Positions 11,131 to 15,749 of a DNA stretch of 64,000 nt are shown piece after piece. The notes below the pieces were generated by a model. That model was given only the letters and a program-made list of their open reading frames with translations. It was not told where the DNA came from and did no database searches. The stretch spans positions 222,161 to 286,160 of the forward strand of contig NZ_FWYF01000002.1 in NCBI RefSeq assembly GCF_900176375.1. The letters are read 5' to 3'. Position 1 is the first letter of the stretch, and each line of letters starts with the position of its first letter. Source of the stretch: Reichenbachiella faecimaris (GTDB lineage: Bacteria; Bacteroidota; Bacteroidia; Cytophagales; Cyclobacteriaceae). A program made the position numbers and the translations under genes.

Positions 11131-11258
11131 GGGACATAGACGTATTGACCCTCCTTCATTTTTAAACTTCCAACGGCACCATCTGATTTAGCATACAAAC
11201 AGCACTATAACAATGGTGTATCCATATATCGCAGCAACGTGGTATTGGTCAGAGTAGA

Positions 11259-11289
11259 AACCTTACAGGTTTTGAAAACCTGTAAGGTT
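11259..11289. repeat. Perfect 15-bp-arm palindrome, REP-like
   Basis: Arms AACCTTACAGGTTTT (11259-11273) and its exact complement (11275-11289) are separated by one base. It lies in the 183-bp gap between the convergent glmS and the 213-aa gene. There is no T-run, so it is not a standard terminator. Similar palindromes built on ACCTTACAGG/CCTGTAAGGT are, to my recollection, dispersed intergenic repeats in Bacteroidota. Confidence 0.75.
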
Positions 11290-11313
11290 GGCGCATATTA
11301 GTTGCAGTCAATA

Positions 11314-11955
11314 TCAATCTTTAACAATGTGTCGCGCGGCTTGATAGCCGGTGAAAAAACTCGGATTGGCGCGTTTGAATCGCTTGAGGACATTATCCAT
11401 TCGAGAGAGTGTTTTGTTTACTTCGTCAAAGAGGCTGGCCAAATCATCGGTAGCCATTCTAGACTGTATCTGATATGATCGGGGCACTCCACGCTTGTCC
11501 TGAAAGACCGCAAAAGACGTTTTCACTTCCTCTATCTGTTCGGCTGACATCCCGTAGTCCGTCATGTCTTCCAAATTAGTTTCTAGCAGGTCGATTACAT
11601 TTTTGGTTTTAATCTCAAAGTCCTCGTGGGATAGTCGGAAGTAGTCTGAGGCCGAATTGCTGGATAGGGACAAAAGTTCGGCGTTGGCTGTGTCGGCAGC
11701 AAATGCTTCTAGCAAGTCGTCGAGGATGTCCATCTTTTGGGCGATCTGATATTTGAGCTCTCGAAGCGACCCTCCTATAAACACCTGCGAAGATTCTTGC
11801 ACGAGCGAAGCCGTTTGTATACCCTGTATCGCTTGAATCAACGTGGTTTTGTAATTGCTGATGATCGGAATGGCACTCCATACGGCAGCATGGGTATCGA
11901 GATACGCATTGGTGGCTTGTGCCATCTCTAGTCGGTTGATTTGTTCTTTCGTCAT
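11314..11955 (-). CDS. Bacteroidota hypothetical protein, helical, 213 aa
   Basis: A soluble, nearly all-helical 213-residue protein without signal peptide or membrane segment. The pattern of the N-terminus (TKEQINRLEMAQ, then a W followed by IPIISNYKTTLIQAIQGIQ) and the C-terminus (RANPSFFTGYQAARHIVKD) reminds me of a Bacteroidota orphan family that often occurs in several copies per genome. No function is known and none is proposed. Base composition is GC-richer (about 50% in places) than the flanking core genes, and the gene sits between a REP-like palindrome and a 21-bp repeat array, which suggests an accessory or mobile context. The ATG at 11955 follows an AT-rich leader. Confidence 0.7.
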   Translation of the reverse strand: MTKEQINRLEMAQATNAYLDTHAAVWSAIPIISNYKTTLIQAIQGIQTASLVQESSQVFIGGSLRELKYQIAQKMDILDDLLEAFAADTANAELLSLSSNSASDYFRLSHEDFEIKTKNVIDLLETNLEDMTDYGMSAEQIEEVKTSFAVFQDKRGVPRSYQIQSRMATDDLASLFDEVNKTLSRMDNVLKRFKRANPSFFTGYQAARHIVKD

Positions 11956-12085
11956 TTTATTAAGTTATTAAAAGGTTAAATAAAATGCTGCTGGTTGATG
12001 AAAATACGACAAATACCTGATAAGGGAAATAAAATTGCATGAAAATATGTGTTATTAACTACCACAATCATCTAGCAATAGGGCT

Positions 12086-12337
12086 ATGCAAATCTAGCAA
12101 GAGCCTGTGCAGGGTGTGGAGTACTGGGTGCAGGCCACCAAGCGAGCTATGCAGGGATGGATGTGCTCTGTGCAGGGTTCAGAGGGGTATGTGCAGCCCA
12201 CCAAGTGGTCTGTGCAGGGTTCGATAGAGGCTATGCAGACCTTAGAGTGGTTTGTGCAAGGTGGCAAGTATACTTTGCAGCCGTCGGAGGGCTTTGTGTA
12301 GTCCTTTGAGTGGATTGTGCGGACTTTTTAGTTCTCA
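12086..12337 (+). repeat. Tandem array of twelve 21-bp degenerate repeats
   Basis: Twelve consecutive units of exactly 21 bp start at 12086, 12107, 12128 and so on to 12317. The rough consensus is GTGCAGGGTTCxxAGTGGTCT. TGCAG at unit positions 2-6, AG at 14-15 and a final T are the best-kept bases, with the edges of the array more diverged. Read from 12107 the array encodes a 7-residue repeat of the type VQGxxxW/Y, but stops occur in the first and eleventh units and no good start is present. The array fills most of the 542-bp gap between the 213-aa gene and the MmeI-like gene. Twenty-one base pairs is two helical turns, so iteron-like protein binding is possible. Confidence 0.85.
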
Positions 12338-12444
12338 CTAATCCTAATGTTTGAAACATCAGAAAAGGTAGTTGATAGCACCAGACCAAGTAGGCAGACA
12401 AACCTAGTAGCAGGATACCTCCAATTAAACCCTCACGGATTATC

Positions 12445-12476
12445 TTGATCCGGCAATCTCATTATATTTACCTTCG
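12445..12476 (+). promoter_or_regulatory. Weak promoter candidate for the MmeI-like gene
   Basis: TTG at 12445-12447, a 21-bp spacer, then TACCTTCG (12469-12476), one mismatch from TAnnTTTG and 22 bp before the ATG at 12498. Confidence 0.3.
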
Positions 12477-12497
12477 TCTATTTTATAACCTAGCCGA

Positions 12498-15239
12498 ATG
12501 CTATTAAGTAAAAATCAAATCAAAAAAAATGCGCTGGCCTTTGCCAAAACATGGGAAGGCGAAAAGCGCGAACGCGCAGAAAAAGACACCTTCTGGAATG
12601 AATTCTTTGAGGTATTCGGTGTAGGAAGAAGGCGAGTAGCCTCTTTTGAAGAGCCTGTCAAAAAACTCAGCGGTGCACAGGGATTTATCGACCTATTCTG
12701 GAAAGGCCAACTGATCGTAGAGCATAAATCCCGAGGGGGCAATCTGGAAAAGGCCTACGGACAGGCCATTGATTACTTCCCCGGCATCAAAGACGAAGAA
12801 CTGCCCCGGTACGTGCTGGTGTCGGATTTCGAGCGGTTCAAACTGTATGATCTCGACAACAAGACCGAGCATGCGTTTCCTCTCAAAGAATTTCAGAACA
12901 AGACCCATCTCTTCGGGTTTATCTCCGGGTACGAAGAACGCAAGATTGTTGAGCAAGACCCAGTCAATATCAAGGCAGCGCAACTGGTGGGACAACTGCA
13001 CGAAAAACTGGAATCCTATGGATTCGAAGGGCATCAGCTCGAAATCTACCTCGTCCGGCTGGTCTTTTGTTTGTTTGCGGATGATGCGGGGATTTTTGAG
13101 AAAGACCTGCTGCTGCAATACATCGAGCGGCGGACAAACCCTGACGGCTCTGATCTGGGCATGCACCTGAGTAAACTCTTTCAGGTGCTCAACAAACCGA
13201 TGGACAAGCGGGCGACCAATCTGGACGAAGACCTACAGCAGTTTCCCTATGTGAATGGCGGTATATTCGCTGAGACCGTAGAGATCCCGGACTTTGATGC
13301 CGAGATGCGCCAGATCTTCCTGGCGTGTAGCTACCTCGATTGGTCGGTGATCTCCCCGGCCATATTTGGTTCCATGTTTCAGTCGGTGATGAATCCCGAG
13401 GAACGCAGAAATCTAGGTGCACATTACACCTCAGAGAAAAATATCCTTCGGTTGATCAAGCCCCTCTTCCTCGACGAACTCTATGATGAGTTTGAAAAAG
13501 TGAAAGGAAACACCAAACAACTGGCCCAGTTTCACAAGAAACTCTCCACACTGAAATTTCTCGATCCGGCCTGTGGCTGTGGCAACTTCCTGGTGATCAC
13601 CTATCGCGAACTACGGATGCTTGAGCTGGAAATCCTTCGGGTGACCTACAAAAAACAAAGGGCTATTGCGATTGACCAGATCATCTGGGTGGACGTGGAT
13701 CAGTTTTACGGCATAGAATACGACGAGTGGCCGGCACGGATCGCCGAGGTGGCCCTATGGCTGGTGGATCACCAGATGAACCGTGTCATCTCCCAGGAGT
13801 TTGGGGAATACTTCGCACGGCTACCGCTGAAAAAGTCCGCCAAGATTGTGAACGACAATGCTCTGCGCATCGATTGGCAGGAAGTGGTACCTAAGTCCGA
13901 GTTGTCTTATATTTTGGGCAATCCGCCGTTTTTAGGACATCATTATCAGAGTCCTGAACAAAAGAAAGATCTGAAACACATTTTTGTAGATGTGAAAGGG
14001 TCTGGAGTGCTTGATTATGTGTCCGCATGGTATGTCAAAGCAGCCCAGTATATTCAACAATCAAATGTAGAGGTAGCCTTTGTATCAACGAGTAGTATAT
14101 CTCAAGGAGAACAAGTTGGCTTGTTATGGAGTGAATTAATTAAATACAAGCTCAAAATTAGTTTTGCTCATAGGACATTTAACTGGAGTAATGAGGCAAG
14201 GTCTAATGCTGCAGTTCATGTTGTGATTATTGGTTTTGGAGTACATGATAAAAAACAAAATGCCATTTATCATTATTCTGATATCAAAGGAGAGCCAACA
14301 AAAGAAAATGCTAAACATATCAATCCATATTTAGTGAATGCTGCTGATGTGATCATTAGAAATACAAGCAATCCAATATGTGACGTACCCAAAATGATAT
14401 GGGGCAACAAACCAACAGATGACGGCAATTTTCTATTTGCTGATGAAAAAGAGAAAGAAGAATTTTTGATTATAGAACCAAATGCGAGAAATTGGGTAAG
14501 ACCATTTTTAAGTGGTCAAAATTTGATTAATAATAACTATAGGTACTGTCTTTGGCTAAAGGATATTACTCCAAATGAACTTAAGAAATTACCTCATGTT
14601 ATCGACCGTATTGAAAAAATAAAGAGGTTCAGAATTGATAGTAAGGCTGAAGCAACTAGAAAAAAAGCCTTAACACCTACCTTGTTTGCTCAAACCTCAC
14701 AACCAGATTCGGATTATCTAGCTGTGCCTGAAGTTTCATCTGAACGAAGAAAATACATTCCCATTGCCTATTTAAATTCAAGTGTAATTGCAAGTAACAC
14801 TATTCAGTTGGTGCCAAATGCAAGTAAATATCATTTTGGCGTTTTGGTTTCTATTATGCATATGATTTGGGTAAGAAATGTTTGTGGGCGATTAAAAAGT
14901 GATTTTAGATATTCTAACACCATTGTCTACAACAACTACCCCTGGCCCAAAGACCCAAGTGCGAAGAATAAAAAGAAAGTAGAAGCCTGTGCACAGGCGG
15001 TGCTGGATGCCCGAGCTTCGTTTCCAAAGAGTTCGCTGGCTGATCTCTACGATCCGCTCACCATGCCGCCCGTCCTCGTCAAGGCACATCAGGCACTGGA
15101 CAAAGCCGTGGACTTGTGCTACCGTCCGCAAGCTTTCGTAGACGAGACCGCCCGGATCGAATATCTCTTCGATCTCTACAGCGAGTACACCGCCCCGCTT
15201 TTTAAGCCTGAGAAGAAAAAAGCCAAAGGCAATCGGTGA
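12498..15239 (+). CDS. MmeI-like single-chain type IIL restriction-modification enzyme (adenine methyltransferase with fused nuclease)
   Basis: A 913-residue protein matching the layout of MmeI. The N-terminal nuclease has the D-x9-E-x-K core (D65, E75, K77 in FIDLFWKGQLIVEHKS). A helical spacer follows, then a gamma-class N6-adenine methyltransferase with SAM motif LDPACGCGNFL (355-365) and catalytic NPPF (475-478), a target recognition region (roughly 560-810) and a C-terminal helical segment. MmeI enzymes methylate one strand of a non-palindromic site and cut about 20 bp away, and need no separate subunits. None is seen nearby. Composition is mosaic: sampled lines are near 58% GC at both ends but near 30% in the middle (about 13930-14935), suggesting recombination of the specificity module. 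The frame is intact. Confidence 0.88.
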   Translation: MLLSKNQIKKNALAFAKTWEGEKRERAEKDTFWNEFFEVFGVGRRRVASFEEPVKKLSGAQGFIDLFWKGQLIVEHKSRGGNLEKAYGQAIDYFPGIKDEELPRYVLVSDFERFKLYDLDNKTEHAFPLKEFQNKTHLFGFISGYEERKIVEQDPVNIKAAQLVGQLHEKLESYGFEGHQLEIYLVRLVFCLFADDAGIFEKDLLLQYIERRTNPDGSDLGMHLSKLFQVLNKPMDKRATNLDEDLQQFPYVNGGIFAETVEIPDFDAEMRQIFLACSYLDWSVISPAIFGSMFQSVMNPEERRNLGAHYTSEKNILRLIKPLFLDELYDEFEKVKGNTKQLAQFHKKLSTLKFLDPACGCGNFLVITYRELRMLELEILRVTYKKQRAIAIDQIIWVDVDQFYGIEYDEWPARIAEVALWLVDHQMNRVISQEFGEYFARLPLKKSAKIVNDNALRIDWQEVVPKSELSYILGNPPFLGHHYQSPEQKKDLKHIFVDVKGSGVLDYVSAWYVKAAQYIQQSNVEVAFVSTSSISQGEQVGLLWSELIKYKLKISFAHRTFNWSNEARSNAAVHVVIIGFGVHDKKQNAIYHYSDIKGEPTKENAKHINPYLVNAADVIIRNTSNPICDVPKMIWGNKPTDDGNFLFADEKEKEEFLIIEPNARNWVRPFLSGQNLINNNYRYCLWLKDITPNELKKLPHVIDRIEKIKRFRIDSKAEATRKKALTPTLFAQTSQPDSDYLAVPEVSSERRKYIPIAYLNSSVIASNTIQLVPNASKYHFGVLVSIMHMIWVRNVCGRLKSDFRYSNTIVYNNYPWPKDPSAKNKKKVEACAQAVLDARASFPKSSLADLYDPLTMPPVLVKAHQALDKAVDLCYRPQAFVDETARIEYLFDLYSEYTAPLFKPEKKKAKGNR

Positions 15240-15322
15240 CGATCCAGTAAAGCGTCCAAGGCTTGGAAACTTTGGAGGGTTAAGAATTTAGCCAATGGTG
15301 GGCAGCTCCACTTGTTTAAGAC

Positions 15323-15330
15323 TATTTTTG
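15323..15330 (+). promoter_or_regulatory. Promoter -7 element upstream of ridA
   Basis: TATTTTTG fits TAnnTTTG and lies 41 bp before the GTG start of ridA. No clear TTG is found at the -33 distance, so support is moderate. Confidence 0.4.
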
Positions 15331-15371
15331 TACCATGGAATAAATTTTAATTGAACAAATAGCGAACTATC

Positions 15372-15749
15372 GTGAAACAAATCATCAACACCGCAAATGC
15401 CCCAGCTCCAATAGGCCCATACAGCCAGTCTACTTTAGCAGGGAATACGCTATACGTATCTGGTCAAATAGCACTTGTACCTGGTACGGACAATCTATTA
15501 CTCGACAGCATCGAAGCAGAAACCCACCAAGTAATGAAAAACATGGGAGCTATATTAAAGGAAGCCGGTGCGGACTACTCCAATGTAGTGAAGTGCTCCA
15601 TCTTCGTGAGCGACATGGGCAATTTTGGAAAAATCAATGCGGTATATGGCGAGTATTTCACCAGCAATCCTCCCGCCAGAGAAACGGTGGAAGTAAGCTG
15701 CCTGCCTAAAAACGTGAATGTGGAAATTTCCTGCATCGCCGTAGTATAA
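15372..15749 (+). CDS. ridA: RidA family reactive intermediate (imine) deaminase
   Basis: A 125-residue small trimeric-type protein of the YjgF/YER057c/UK114 family, which hydrolyses reactive enamine/imine intermediates such as 2-aminoacrylate from PLP enzymes. The family signature is clear: NAPAPIGPYSQS at the N-terminus, LYVSGQIALVPGT, VVKCSIFVSDMGNF, and the C-terminal VEVSCLPKNVNVEISCIAVV. The conserved Arg sits in NPPARETVEV. The start is GTG at 15372, which gives the family's usual N-terminus. A terminator follows, so it is likely monocistronic. It marks the return to core genome after the accessory island. Confidence 0.95.
   Translation: MKQIINTANAPAPIGPYSQSTLAGNTLYVSGQIALVPGTDNLLLDSIEAETHQVMKNMGAILKEAGADYSNVVKCSIFVSDMGNFGKINAVYGEYFTSNPPARETVEVSCLPKNVNVEISCIAVV

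What the first reader, a model, noticed from the sequence alone, without database searches (positions are those of the whole stretch)
12498..15239. MmeI-like gene with a swapped low-GC specificity module
GC is about 58% in sampled lines at both ends but about 30% across roughly 13930-14935. That region spans the end of the methyltransferase and the target recognition domain. The sharp change inside one intact frame suggests recombination exchanged the TRD and thus the DNA site.
Basis: partly seen in the sequence, partly recalled or inferred. Interest (0 to 1): 0.65.

Follow-up and report, generated by a model that had tools for sequence, protein, structure and literature searches.

The report
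Restriction enzyme with exchanged specificity module
A bacterial DNA-cutting-and-marking enzyme has had the part that chooses its DNA target replaced by recombination, a known kind of event, and its relatives trade the same part so often that the AT-rich patch it leaves is nearly universal among them.

Summary
Window 12498-15239 (+) is one intact 913-aa MmeI-family (Type IIL) restriction-modification gene. GC3 runs 0.61 / 0.24 / 0.64 with steps at 13929 and 14916 (log-likelihood gain 61; at most 12.8 in 121 other genes tested). The ends average 50-55% GC, not 58%; the host is about 40%, so frame and middle are both foreign to it.

The steps are not the Pfam TRD borders: they lie on catalytic motif NPPF and just before VYNNYPWP. 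Exchange is supported without GC. The TRD core (residues 606-770) rejects the frame's sister gene (AU p = 0.0003), and the frame rejects the module's (p = 0.0002). Other family members with 90-98% identical N parts carry modules only 46-60% identical. For residues 482-605 of this gene, trees are undecided; there the larger unit rests on GC and on relatives.

GC alone was weak evidence: the middle has lower GC3 than the N part in 88 of 90 relatives. I favour repeated import from AT-rich donors (module follows host GC3 with slope 0.58, frame 0.93); intrinsic bias is not excluded.

Predicted site nCC(R/G)AG, untested. TRD exchange in Type IIG enzymes is published; this is a new member of a known kind.

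The parts
12498..15239 (+). MmeI-family (Type IIL/IIG) restriction endonuclease-methyltransferase, 913 aa
   Evidence: Pfam MmeI_N, hel, Mtase, TRD, C in order; PADLOC REase_MTase_IIG 1239.8 bits; MmeI 5hr4 1080 bits over 1-911
12498..13928 (+). N-terminal frame: nuclease, helical spacer, methyltransferase up to NPP of motif IV; GC3 0.61
12690..12728 (+). nuclease motif D65...E75-x-K77
   Evidence: each residue kept in 90 of 91 aligned genes; catalytic role by analogy with PD-(D/E)xK nucleases, recalled
13563..13592 (+). methyltransferase motif I (DPACGCGNFL), AdoMet binding
   Evidence: motif described in PMC4833311 passages
13920..13931 (+). motif IV NPPF, catalytic; left composition step at 13929, the F codon
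   Evidence: N, P, P in 91 of 91; F in 90 of 91
13929..14915 (+). AT-rich specificity module by composition (residues 478-806): second half of methyltransferase plus TRD; GC3 0.24
14313..14807 (+). TRD core, residues 606-770: the part whose foreign ancestry trees prove for this gene
   Evidence: frame sisters rejected, p 0.00028 and 1.5e-5
13938..13946 (+). H481-H482-Y483, counterparts of MmeI K487/S488/K489 (minor-groove contacts)
14895..14909 (+). K800-S-D802-F-R804, counterparts of MmeI E806/R808/R810; K-D predicts G at recognition position 6
14916..15239 (+). C-terminal frame; GC3 0.64
14925..14948 (+). conserved block VYNNYPWP just after the right composition step (14916)
11131..15371 (.). 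4.2 kb island between glmS and ridA that holds the gene; the two lie about 55 bp apart in congener G002

Best explanation
The gene encodes a single-chain MmeI-family (Type IIL) enzyme that marks one adenine of an asymmetric site and cuts unmarked DNA some 20 bases away (family knowledge). It is a natural chimera. A conserved, GC-richer frame (nuclease, spacer and AdoMet-binding half of the methyltransferase, plus the C-terminal domain) carries an AT-rich specificity module that most likely runs as one cassette of about 990 bp from the NPPF codons to just before VYNNYPWP. The cassette holds the residues that the MmeI structure assigns to reading base pairs 1-6; of the pocket for the methylated adenine, NPP and the conserved H stay with the frame. 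Replacing it therefore retargets methylation and cleavage together. Shown: the composition steps; foreign ancestry of the TRD core (606-770) relative to the frame; relatives with one frame and different modules. Inferred: that residues 478-605 and 771-806 came with the core, homologous recombination at the two conserved blocks, AT-rich donors, enzyme activity, and the site nCC(R/G)AG.
For: Steps at 13929 and 14916, far beyond 92 host ORFs. Frame and module trees of 91 genes conflict: module tree on frame data costs 5604 log-likelihood units (AU p 0.0009), frame tree on module data 2798 (p 6e-5). For this gene, frame data reject its module sister L041 (p 0.00024; with L083 4e-6), and TRD-core data reject its frame sisters (L019 p 0.00028; with L122 1.5e-5) and group it with L083 and L041. 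L041 has this gene as its nearest module (0.64) but L003 as its nearest N part (0.88); its module has the same GC3, 0.24, in a 0.79 frame. Of 17 pairs with N >0.90 and C >0.85, 11 fall under the module cut of 0.60. In 17 breakpoint fits the left border lies at residues 467-481 in 12 and the right at 809-812 in 6. Contact residues map inside the cassette.
Against: Residues 482-605 alone are undecided: frame sister L019 p 0.063, L019+L122 p 0.09, module sister L041 p 0.063; so the large unit in this gene rests on composition and on relatives. TRD-core data also reject L001+L041 as an exclusive pair (p 0.007), preferring L083 as sister. The whole module does not reject L001+L019 at 5% (p 0.0585; with L122 0.038), and C data reject L001+L041 only at p 0.04. 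The middle has lower GC3 in 88 of 90 relatives, so an intrinsic bias may contribute. No relative has a near-identical N part or module (nearest 0.70 and 0.64): the event is old and its donor unseen. Swap pairs share genes and are not independent, and right borders scatter outside 809-812 in 11 of 17 fits.
Confidence: 0.62

Rival explanations
1. A smaller swap, TRD core only (about residues 580-633 to 736-784); the low GC of 478-605 then has another cause.
For: Only 606-770 is proven foreign by trees; 482-605 is undecided and the frame relative L122 is as close there as L041. Such a unit exists in relatives: 13 of 45 pairs with N >0.85 and C >0.80. Low GC3 in the middle is the family norm, so the step at 478 need not be a border of this exchange.
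Against: GC3 is already 0.20-0.33 over residues 481-600 and the step sits at 478, 137 residues before the Pfam TRD start; 24 of the 45 pairs show the large unit.
Confidence: 0.2
2. The AT-richness is intrinsic: the middle of MmeI-family genes drifts to AT in place (other mutation, weaker codon selection, or less GC-biased conversion than the flanks). The GC step then records no import, whatever exchange took place.
For: Module GC3 is below N in 88 of 90 and below C in 77 of 90 relatives and correlates with N (r 0.86). The drop is seen also in 12 genes from records titled outside Bacteroidota (mean -0.105) and in AT-rich genes. N exceeds host GC3 by 0.053 on average, as biased conversion of flanks would give.
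Against: In 13 of 14 genes of hosts with GC3 0.32 or less the module lies within 0.06 of the host, while in 14 genes of hosts above 0.5 it is 0.22 below; slope on host 0.58 against 0.93 (N) and 0.91 (C). Modules of one lineage keep GC3 0.24 in frames of 0.61 and 0.79 (L001, L041). It does not explain tree conflict or swap pairs.
Confidence: 0.15
3. Assembly or binning artefact.
For: Frame and module both have non-host composition.
Against: Intact 913-aa frame with catalytic residues on a 1.1 Mb contig; glmS and gltX on either side have host-like GC3, 0.37 and 0.43, and congener G002 keeps that order without the gene; the same anatomy recurs in other genomes.
Confidence: 0.02

Closest known systems
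MmeI (PDB 5hr4; Type IIL, TCCRAC)
   Same: Full-length collinear homologue, 1080 bits over residues 1-911; same motifs, contact residues map one to one
   Different: E-R at 806/808 is K-D here, which predicts G instead of C at position 6; A774 is T; Y642 is W; F737/Y738 are A/Q
TRD exchange between Type IIG backbones of Helicobacter pylori (PMC10423294, passages read)
   Same: Different TRDs recombine into similar methyltransferase backbones
   Different: There within one species; here swap pairs lie between species and in some cases genera, with a composition contrast. The passages seen do not give borders
Domain movement (DoMo) and TRD reassortment in Type I S genes (PMC3077401, abstract start in a listing only; PMC3983042, passages)
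   Same: Recombination of recognition modules through conserved flanks
   Different: Type I moves TRDs between two slots through repeats; here there is a single slot and no repeat pair lies at the borders

Membership tests
MmeI family (Type IIL/IIG) | MmeI_N, hel, Mtase, TRD, C domains in order | tested here: met
   all five above the Pfam cut-off
MmeI family (Type IIL/IIG) | gamma-class motifs I and NPPF with conserved H and W around the flipped base | tested here: met
   motif I, NPPF, W563; GAHYTSE aligned with MmeI; conservation stated in PMC4833311 passages
MmeI family (Type IIL/IIG) | N-terminal nuclease D...ExK | tested here: met
   D65, E75, K77, each in 90 of 91; catalytic role recalled
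MmeI family (Type IIL/IIG) | methylates one strand and cuts about 20 bases downstream | not testable with these tools
   needs protein and methylome
Naturally exchanged specificity module | abrupt step at module borders inside an intact frame | tested here: met
   but a lower-GC middle is the family norm
Naturally exchanged specificity module | frame and module have different relatives | tested here: met
   met for residues 606-770 and for the frame; undecided for 482-605; whole module p 0.0585 and 0.038
Naturally exchanged specificity module | close relative with the same frame and another module | tested here: inconclusive
   found for other family members (11 of 17 pairs); for this gene no relative exceeds 0.70 in N
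Naturally exchanged specificity module | changed DNA target | not testable with these tools
   contact residues differ at 6-10 of 11 positions in the 11 swap pairs, but also at 4-8 in 5 of the other 6 close-frame pairs; only L031/L032 has none. The sites are unmeasured

The most novel reading that the evidence does not exclude
MmeI-family enzymes of this phylum (Bacteroidota by inference) share a circulating pool of AT-rich specificity cassettes that plug into one conserved frame at two fixed sockets (motif IV NPPF and VYNNFPW), with a nested smaller cassette (about residues 580-633 to 736-784) as a second exchange unit. Because modules reach GC-rich hosts faster than they adapt, a composition step inside the gene is a lasting mark of repeated retargeting across species and genera.
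Probability: 0.45. Interest if true: 0.6.

Novelty: new member of a known kind. Interest (0 to 1): 0.42.

Why it matters
It shows, from natural exchanges, where a single-chain restriction enzyme can be cut and rejoined: in many relatives not at the annotated TRD but at the catalytic motif, between the methylation pocket and the first residues that touch the other base pairs. That is a testable design rule for exchanging specificity in MmeI-type laboratory enzymes, and a way to read past retargeting from sequence. It also warns that a GC drop in the middle of these genes is the family norm and is not by itself proof of a swap.

Tried and rejected
Viral contigs: 9 pattern matches, none a relative. 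A closer donor of the module: 395 genomes of the class searched with the module alone gave nothing above 55% besides the gene itself, against 0.64 for L041. Border repeats: only short, imperfect matches, none at the borders. Tandem repeat in the odd stretch upstream: none. Promoter-like sites in 11900-15450: 8 found, 6.6 expected. tRNA genes: none in the window. PADLOC gives the neighbour 15372-15749 as PD-T4-2_B, but Pfam shows a RidA-type protein; rejected as a defence gene. The first tree script failed on thread number and was rerun; its AU replicates were 5000, below the program's advice. Breakpoint fits for L002/L072, L072/L084 and L124/L007 fell on an alignment insert and that for L095/L092 (280-578) made no sense; not used. 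20 of 111 homologous loci were dropped as truncated, broken or duplicate.

Full report
What is there. Window 12498-15239 (+) is one frame of 913 aa without internal stops. All five MmeI-family Pfam domains are present in order, PADLOC calls it a Type IIG enzyme-methyltransferase at 1239.8 bits, and it aligns with crystallised MmeI over 1-911 at 1080 bits. Nuclease residues D65, E75 and K77 are each kept in 90 of 91 aligned genes, N, P and P of motif IV and W563 in 91 of 91, F478 in 90 of 91. The gene is probably active; that is inference.

The composition. GC3 is 0.61 over codons 1-477, 0.24 over 478-806 and 0.64 after that; the fitted steps are at 13929 and 14916, gain 61.3. Controls: at most 10.1 in 20 shuffles and 11.2 in 29 other window ORFs, picked from 69 listed; at most 12.8 in 92 ORFs of 400+ codons from 400 kb of the same contig. 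Host GC3 is 0.390 +- 0.045 over 240 ORFs; none is as high as the frame and one is as low as the module. Two foreign compositions meet in one gene.

The island. In congener G002 glmS and ridA are about 55 bp apart (L129); here 4.2 kb lies between them. Searches of the 7 congeners gave no relative of the gene at E 0.001. So the gene arrived by horizontal transfer, or was lost in the others; whether it arrived as a chimera is not shown. No call names the organism; I take it for a member of Bacteroidota because its nearest named relatives are.

Is the drop peculiar to this gene? No. Of 111 homologous loci, 91 full-length unique genes were kept. Excluding this gene, the middle has lower GC3 than N in 88 of 90 and than C in 77 of 90; N and C agree (r 0.94, slope 0.95), N and M less (r 0.86, slope 0.72). 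The size varies: mean M-N is -0.143 in 78 genes assigned to the window's phylum and -0.105 in 12 others; here it is -0.37, and this gene ranks 7th of 91 by likelihood gain. Of 21 genes with a gain of 24 or more (this one included), the fitted middle is low in 21, the left step lies at residues 461-500 in 15 and the right step at 771-827 in 19. The stated refuter 'similar GC drop in all homologues' is thus partly met, and GC alone does not prove a swap here.

Is there exchange in the family, judged without GC? Yes. L084/L085 are N 0.98, M 0.46, C 0.94; L057/L061 0.98, 0.52, 0.97; L023/L025 0.94, 0.55, 0.89. Of 17 pairs with N >0.90 and C >0.85, 11 passed the cut M <0.60 (L058/L054 prints as 0.60), over 13 genes. 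That the middle can also stay put is shown by L031/L032 (0.94, 0.95, 0.88), with 0 of 11 contact residues changed, and by L124/L008. In 17 pairs chosen for breakpoint fits, the left border fell at residues 467-481 in 12 (L002/L072, fitted to an alignment insert, not counted) and the right border at 809-812 in 6; in the other 11 the right border scattered. With a looser cut (N >0.85, C >0.80; 45 pairs) 24 look like the large unit, 13 like a smaller TRD-core unit, 6 are mixed and 2 show none. The class cut-offs are mine and the pairs share genes.

Trees. Frame (N+C, 558 columns) and module (321 columns) trees reject each other strongly (columns, tests). C data also reject the N+C tree (difference 193, AU 6e-10), but far less than the module tree (984), so C is not perfectly congruent. 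For this gene the frame tree gives L019 as sister, the module tree L041. Frame data reject L001+L041 (difference 315, p 0.00024) and L001+L041+L083 (309, p 4e-6). The whole module is less decided about the frame sister: L001+L019 p 0.0585; with L122 p 0.038. Cut in two, the TRD core (606-770, 164 columns) groups the gene with L083 and L041 and rejects L001+L019 (p 0.00028) and L001+L019+L122 (1.5e-5); it also rejects L001+L041 without L083 (p 0.007). The first part (482-605, 124 columns) is undecided for every clade tried (p 0.06-0.09). So exchange of the TRD core is proven by trees; that 478-605 came along is inferred from composition and from relatives. In slices, L122 and L041 are about equally near in 482-605, and L041 or L083 lead or tie for the lead in 606-770. 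The nearest relative by N is also the nearest by M in 14 of 91 genes, and the nearest by C in 33 of 91.

Why those borders. From the MmeI-DNA structure (PMC4833311; abstract, outline and passages seen) the contacts listed for base pairs 1-6 are K487, S488 and K489, just after NPPF 481-484, then residues from Y642 to R810. Mapped here they run from residue 481 to 804; the steps are at 478 and 807. Part of the pocket for the flipped adenine (NPP and the conserved H) stays in the frame. The ends are strongly conserved: G474-F478 at 0.99-1.0; V810, Y811, N812 and P815 at 0.97-0.99. That conserved DNA guides the crossovers is inference.

Predicted target. K at the MmeI 645 position favours C at position 2; E and N at 751/773, as in MmeI, favour C at 3; R810 with T at 774 gives R or G at 4; adenine at 5; K-D at 806/808 specifies G at 6 (rules; residues). 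Position 1 is open. L041 shares 9 of these 11 residues and has E-R at position 6, so it should end in C. My memory says NmeAIII reads GCCGAG; this comes from no call.

Source of the AT-rich modules. Over 43 genes in 41 genomes (host GC3 from one 20 kb stretch each, 7-16 ORFs, except this genome), N follows the host with slope 0.93, C 0.91, M 0.58. In hosts of GC3 0.32 or less the module is within 0.06 of the host in 13 of 14; in 14 genes of hosts above 0.5 it is 0.22 below while N is 0.03 above. In 7 pairs whose modules are closer than their frames, GC3 differs by 0.037 in modules and 0.121 in frames (p 0.03). I take this to favour import from AT-rich donors over an intrinsic bias; the near-universal sign of the drop, also outside the phylum, speaks for some intrinsic part.

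What is known. TRD recombination within Type IIG backbones is described for H. pylori (PMC10423294, passages) and reassortment in Type I (PMC3983042 passages; PMC3874165 passages). PMC3874165 says that MmeI-family specificities diversified extensively. My searches (listings, plus passages of five papers) showed me no text on the borders of exchange in MmeI-family enzymes or on their composition contrast; I did not read those papers whole, and most subscription papers are not held. I file the gene as a new member of a known kind.

Noticed in passing
window 11314-11955 (-): 213-aa frame without Pfam match, GC3 0.53, in the same island; a second copy 85% identical lies elsewhere in the genome and two or more matches occur in each of G003, G004, G006 and G014, as of a multicopy family.
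   Followed up: partly
window 12075-12320: Stretch with many degenerate TGCAGG-like words, G-rich on the + strand, between that frame and the MmeI-family gene; not called as a tandem repeat.
   Followed up: partly
L128 5494-6357: Congener G005 carries two tandem ridA-like copies where the window has one.
   Followed up: no
L093-L097, L100, L101: GC trough limited to about residues 603-644 to 771-785, and swap pairs of about that size among several of them: a nested, smaller exchange unit.
   Followed up: partly
G339, G255, G560, G795, G677, G201, G192, G155: Genomes with two MmeI-family loci, some of them broken; exchange between copies within a genome was not tested.
   Followed up: no
window 15372-15749: PADLOC model PD-T4-2_B matches an ordinary RidA-type protein at 1.8e-37, a likely source of false defence calls.
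   Followed up: yes
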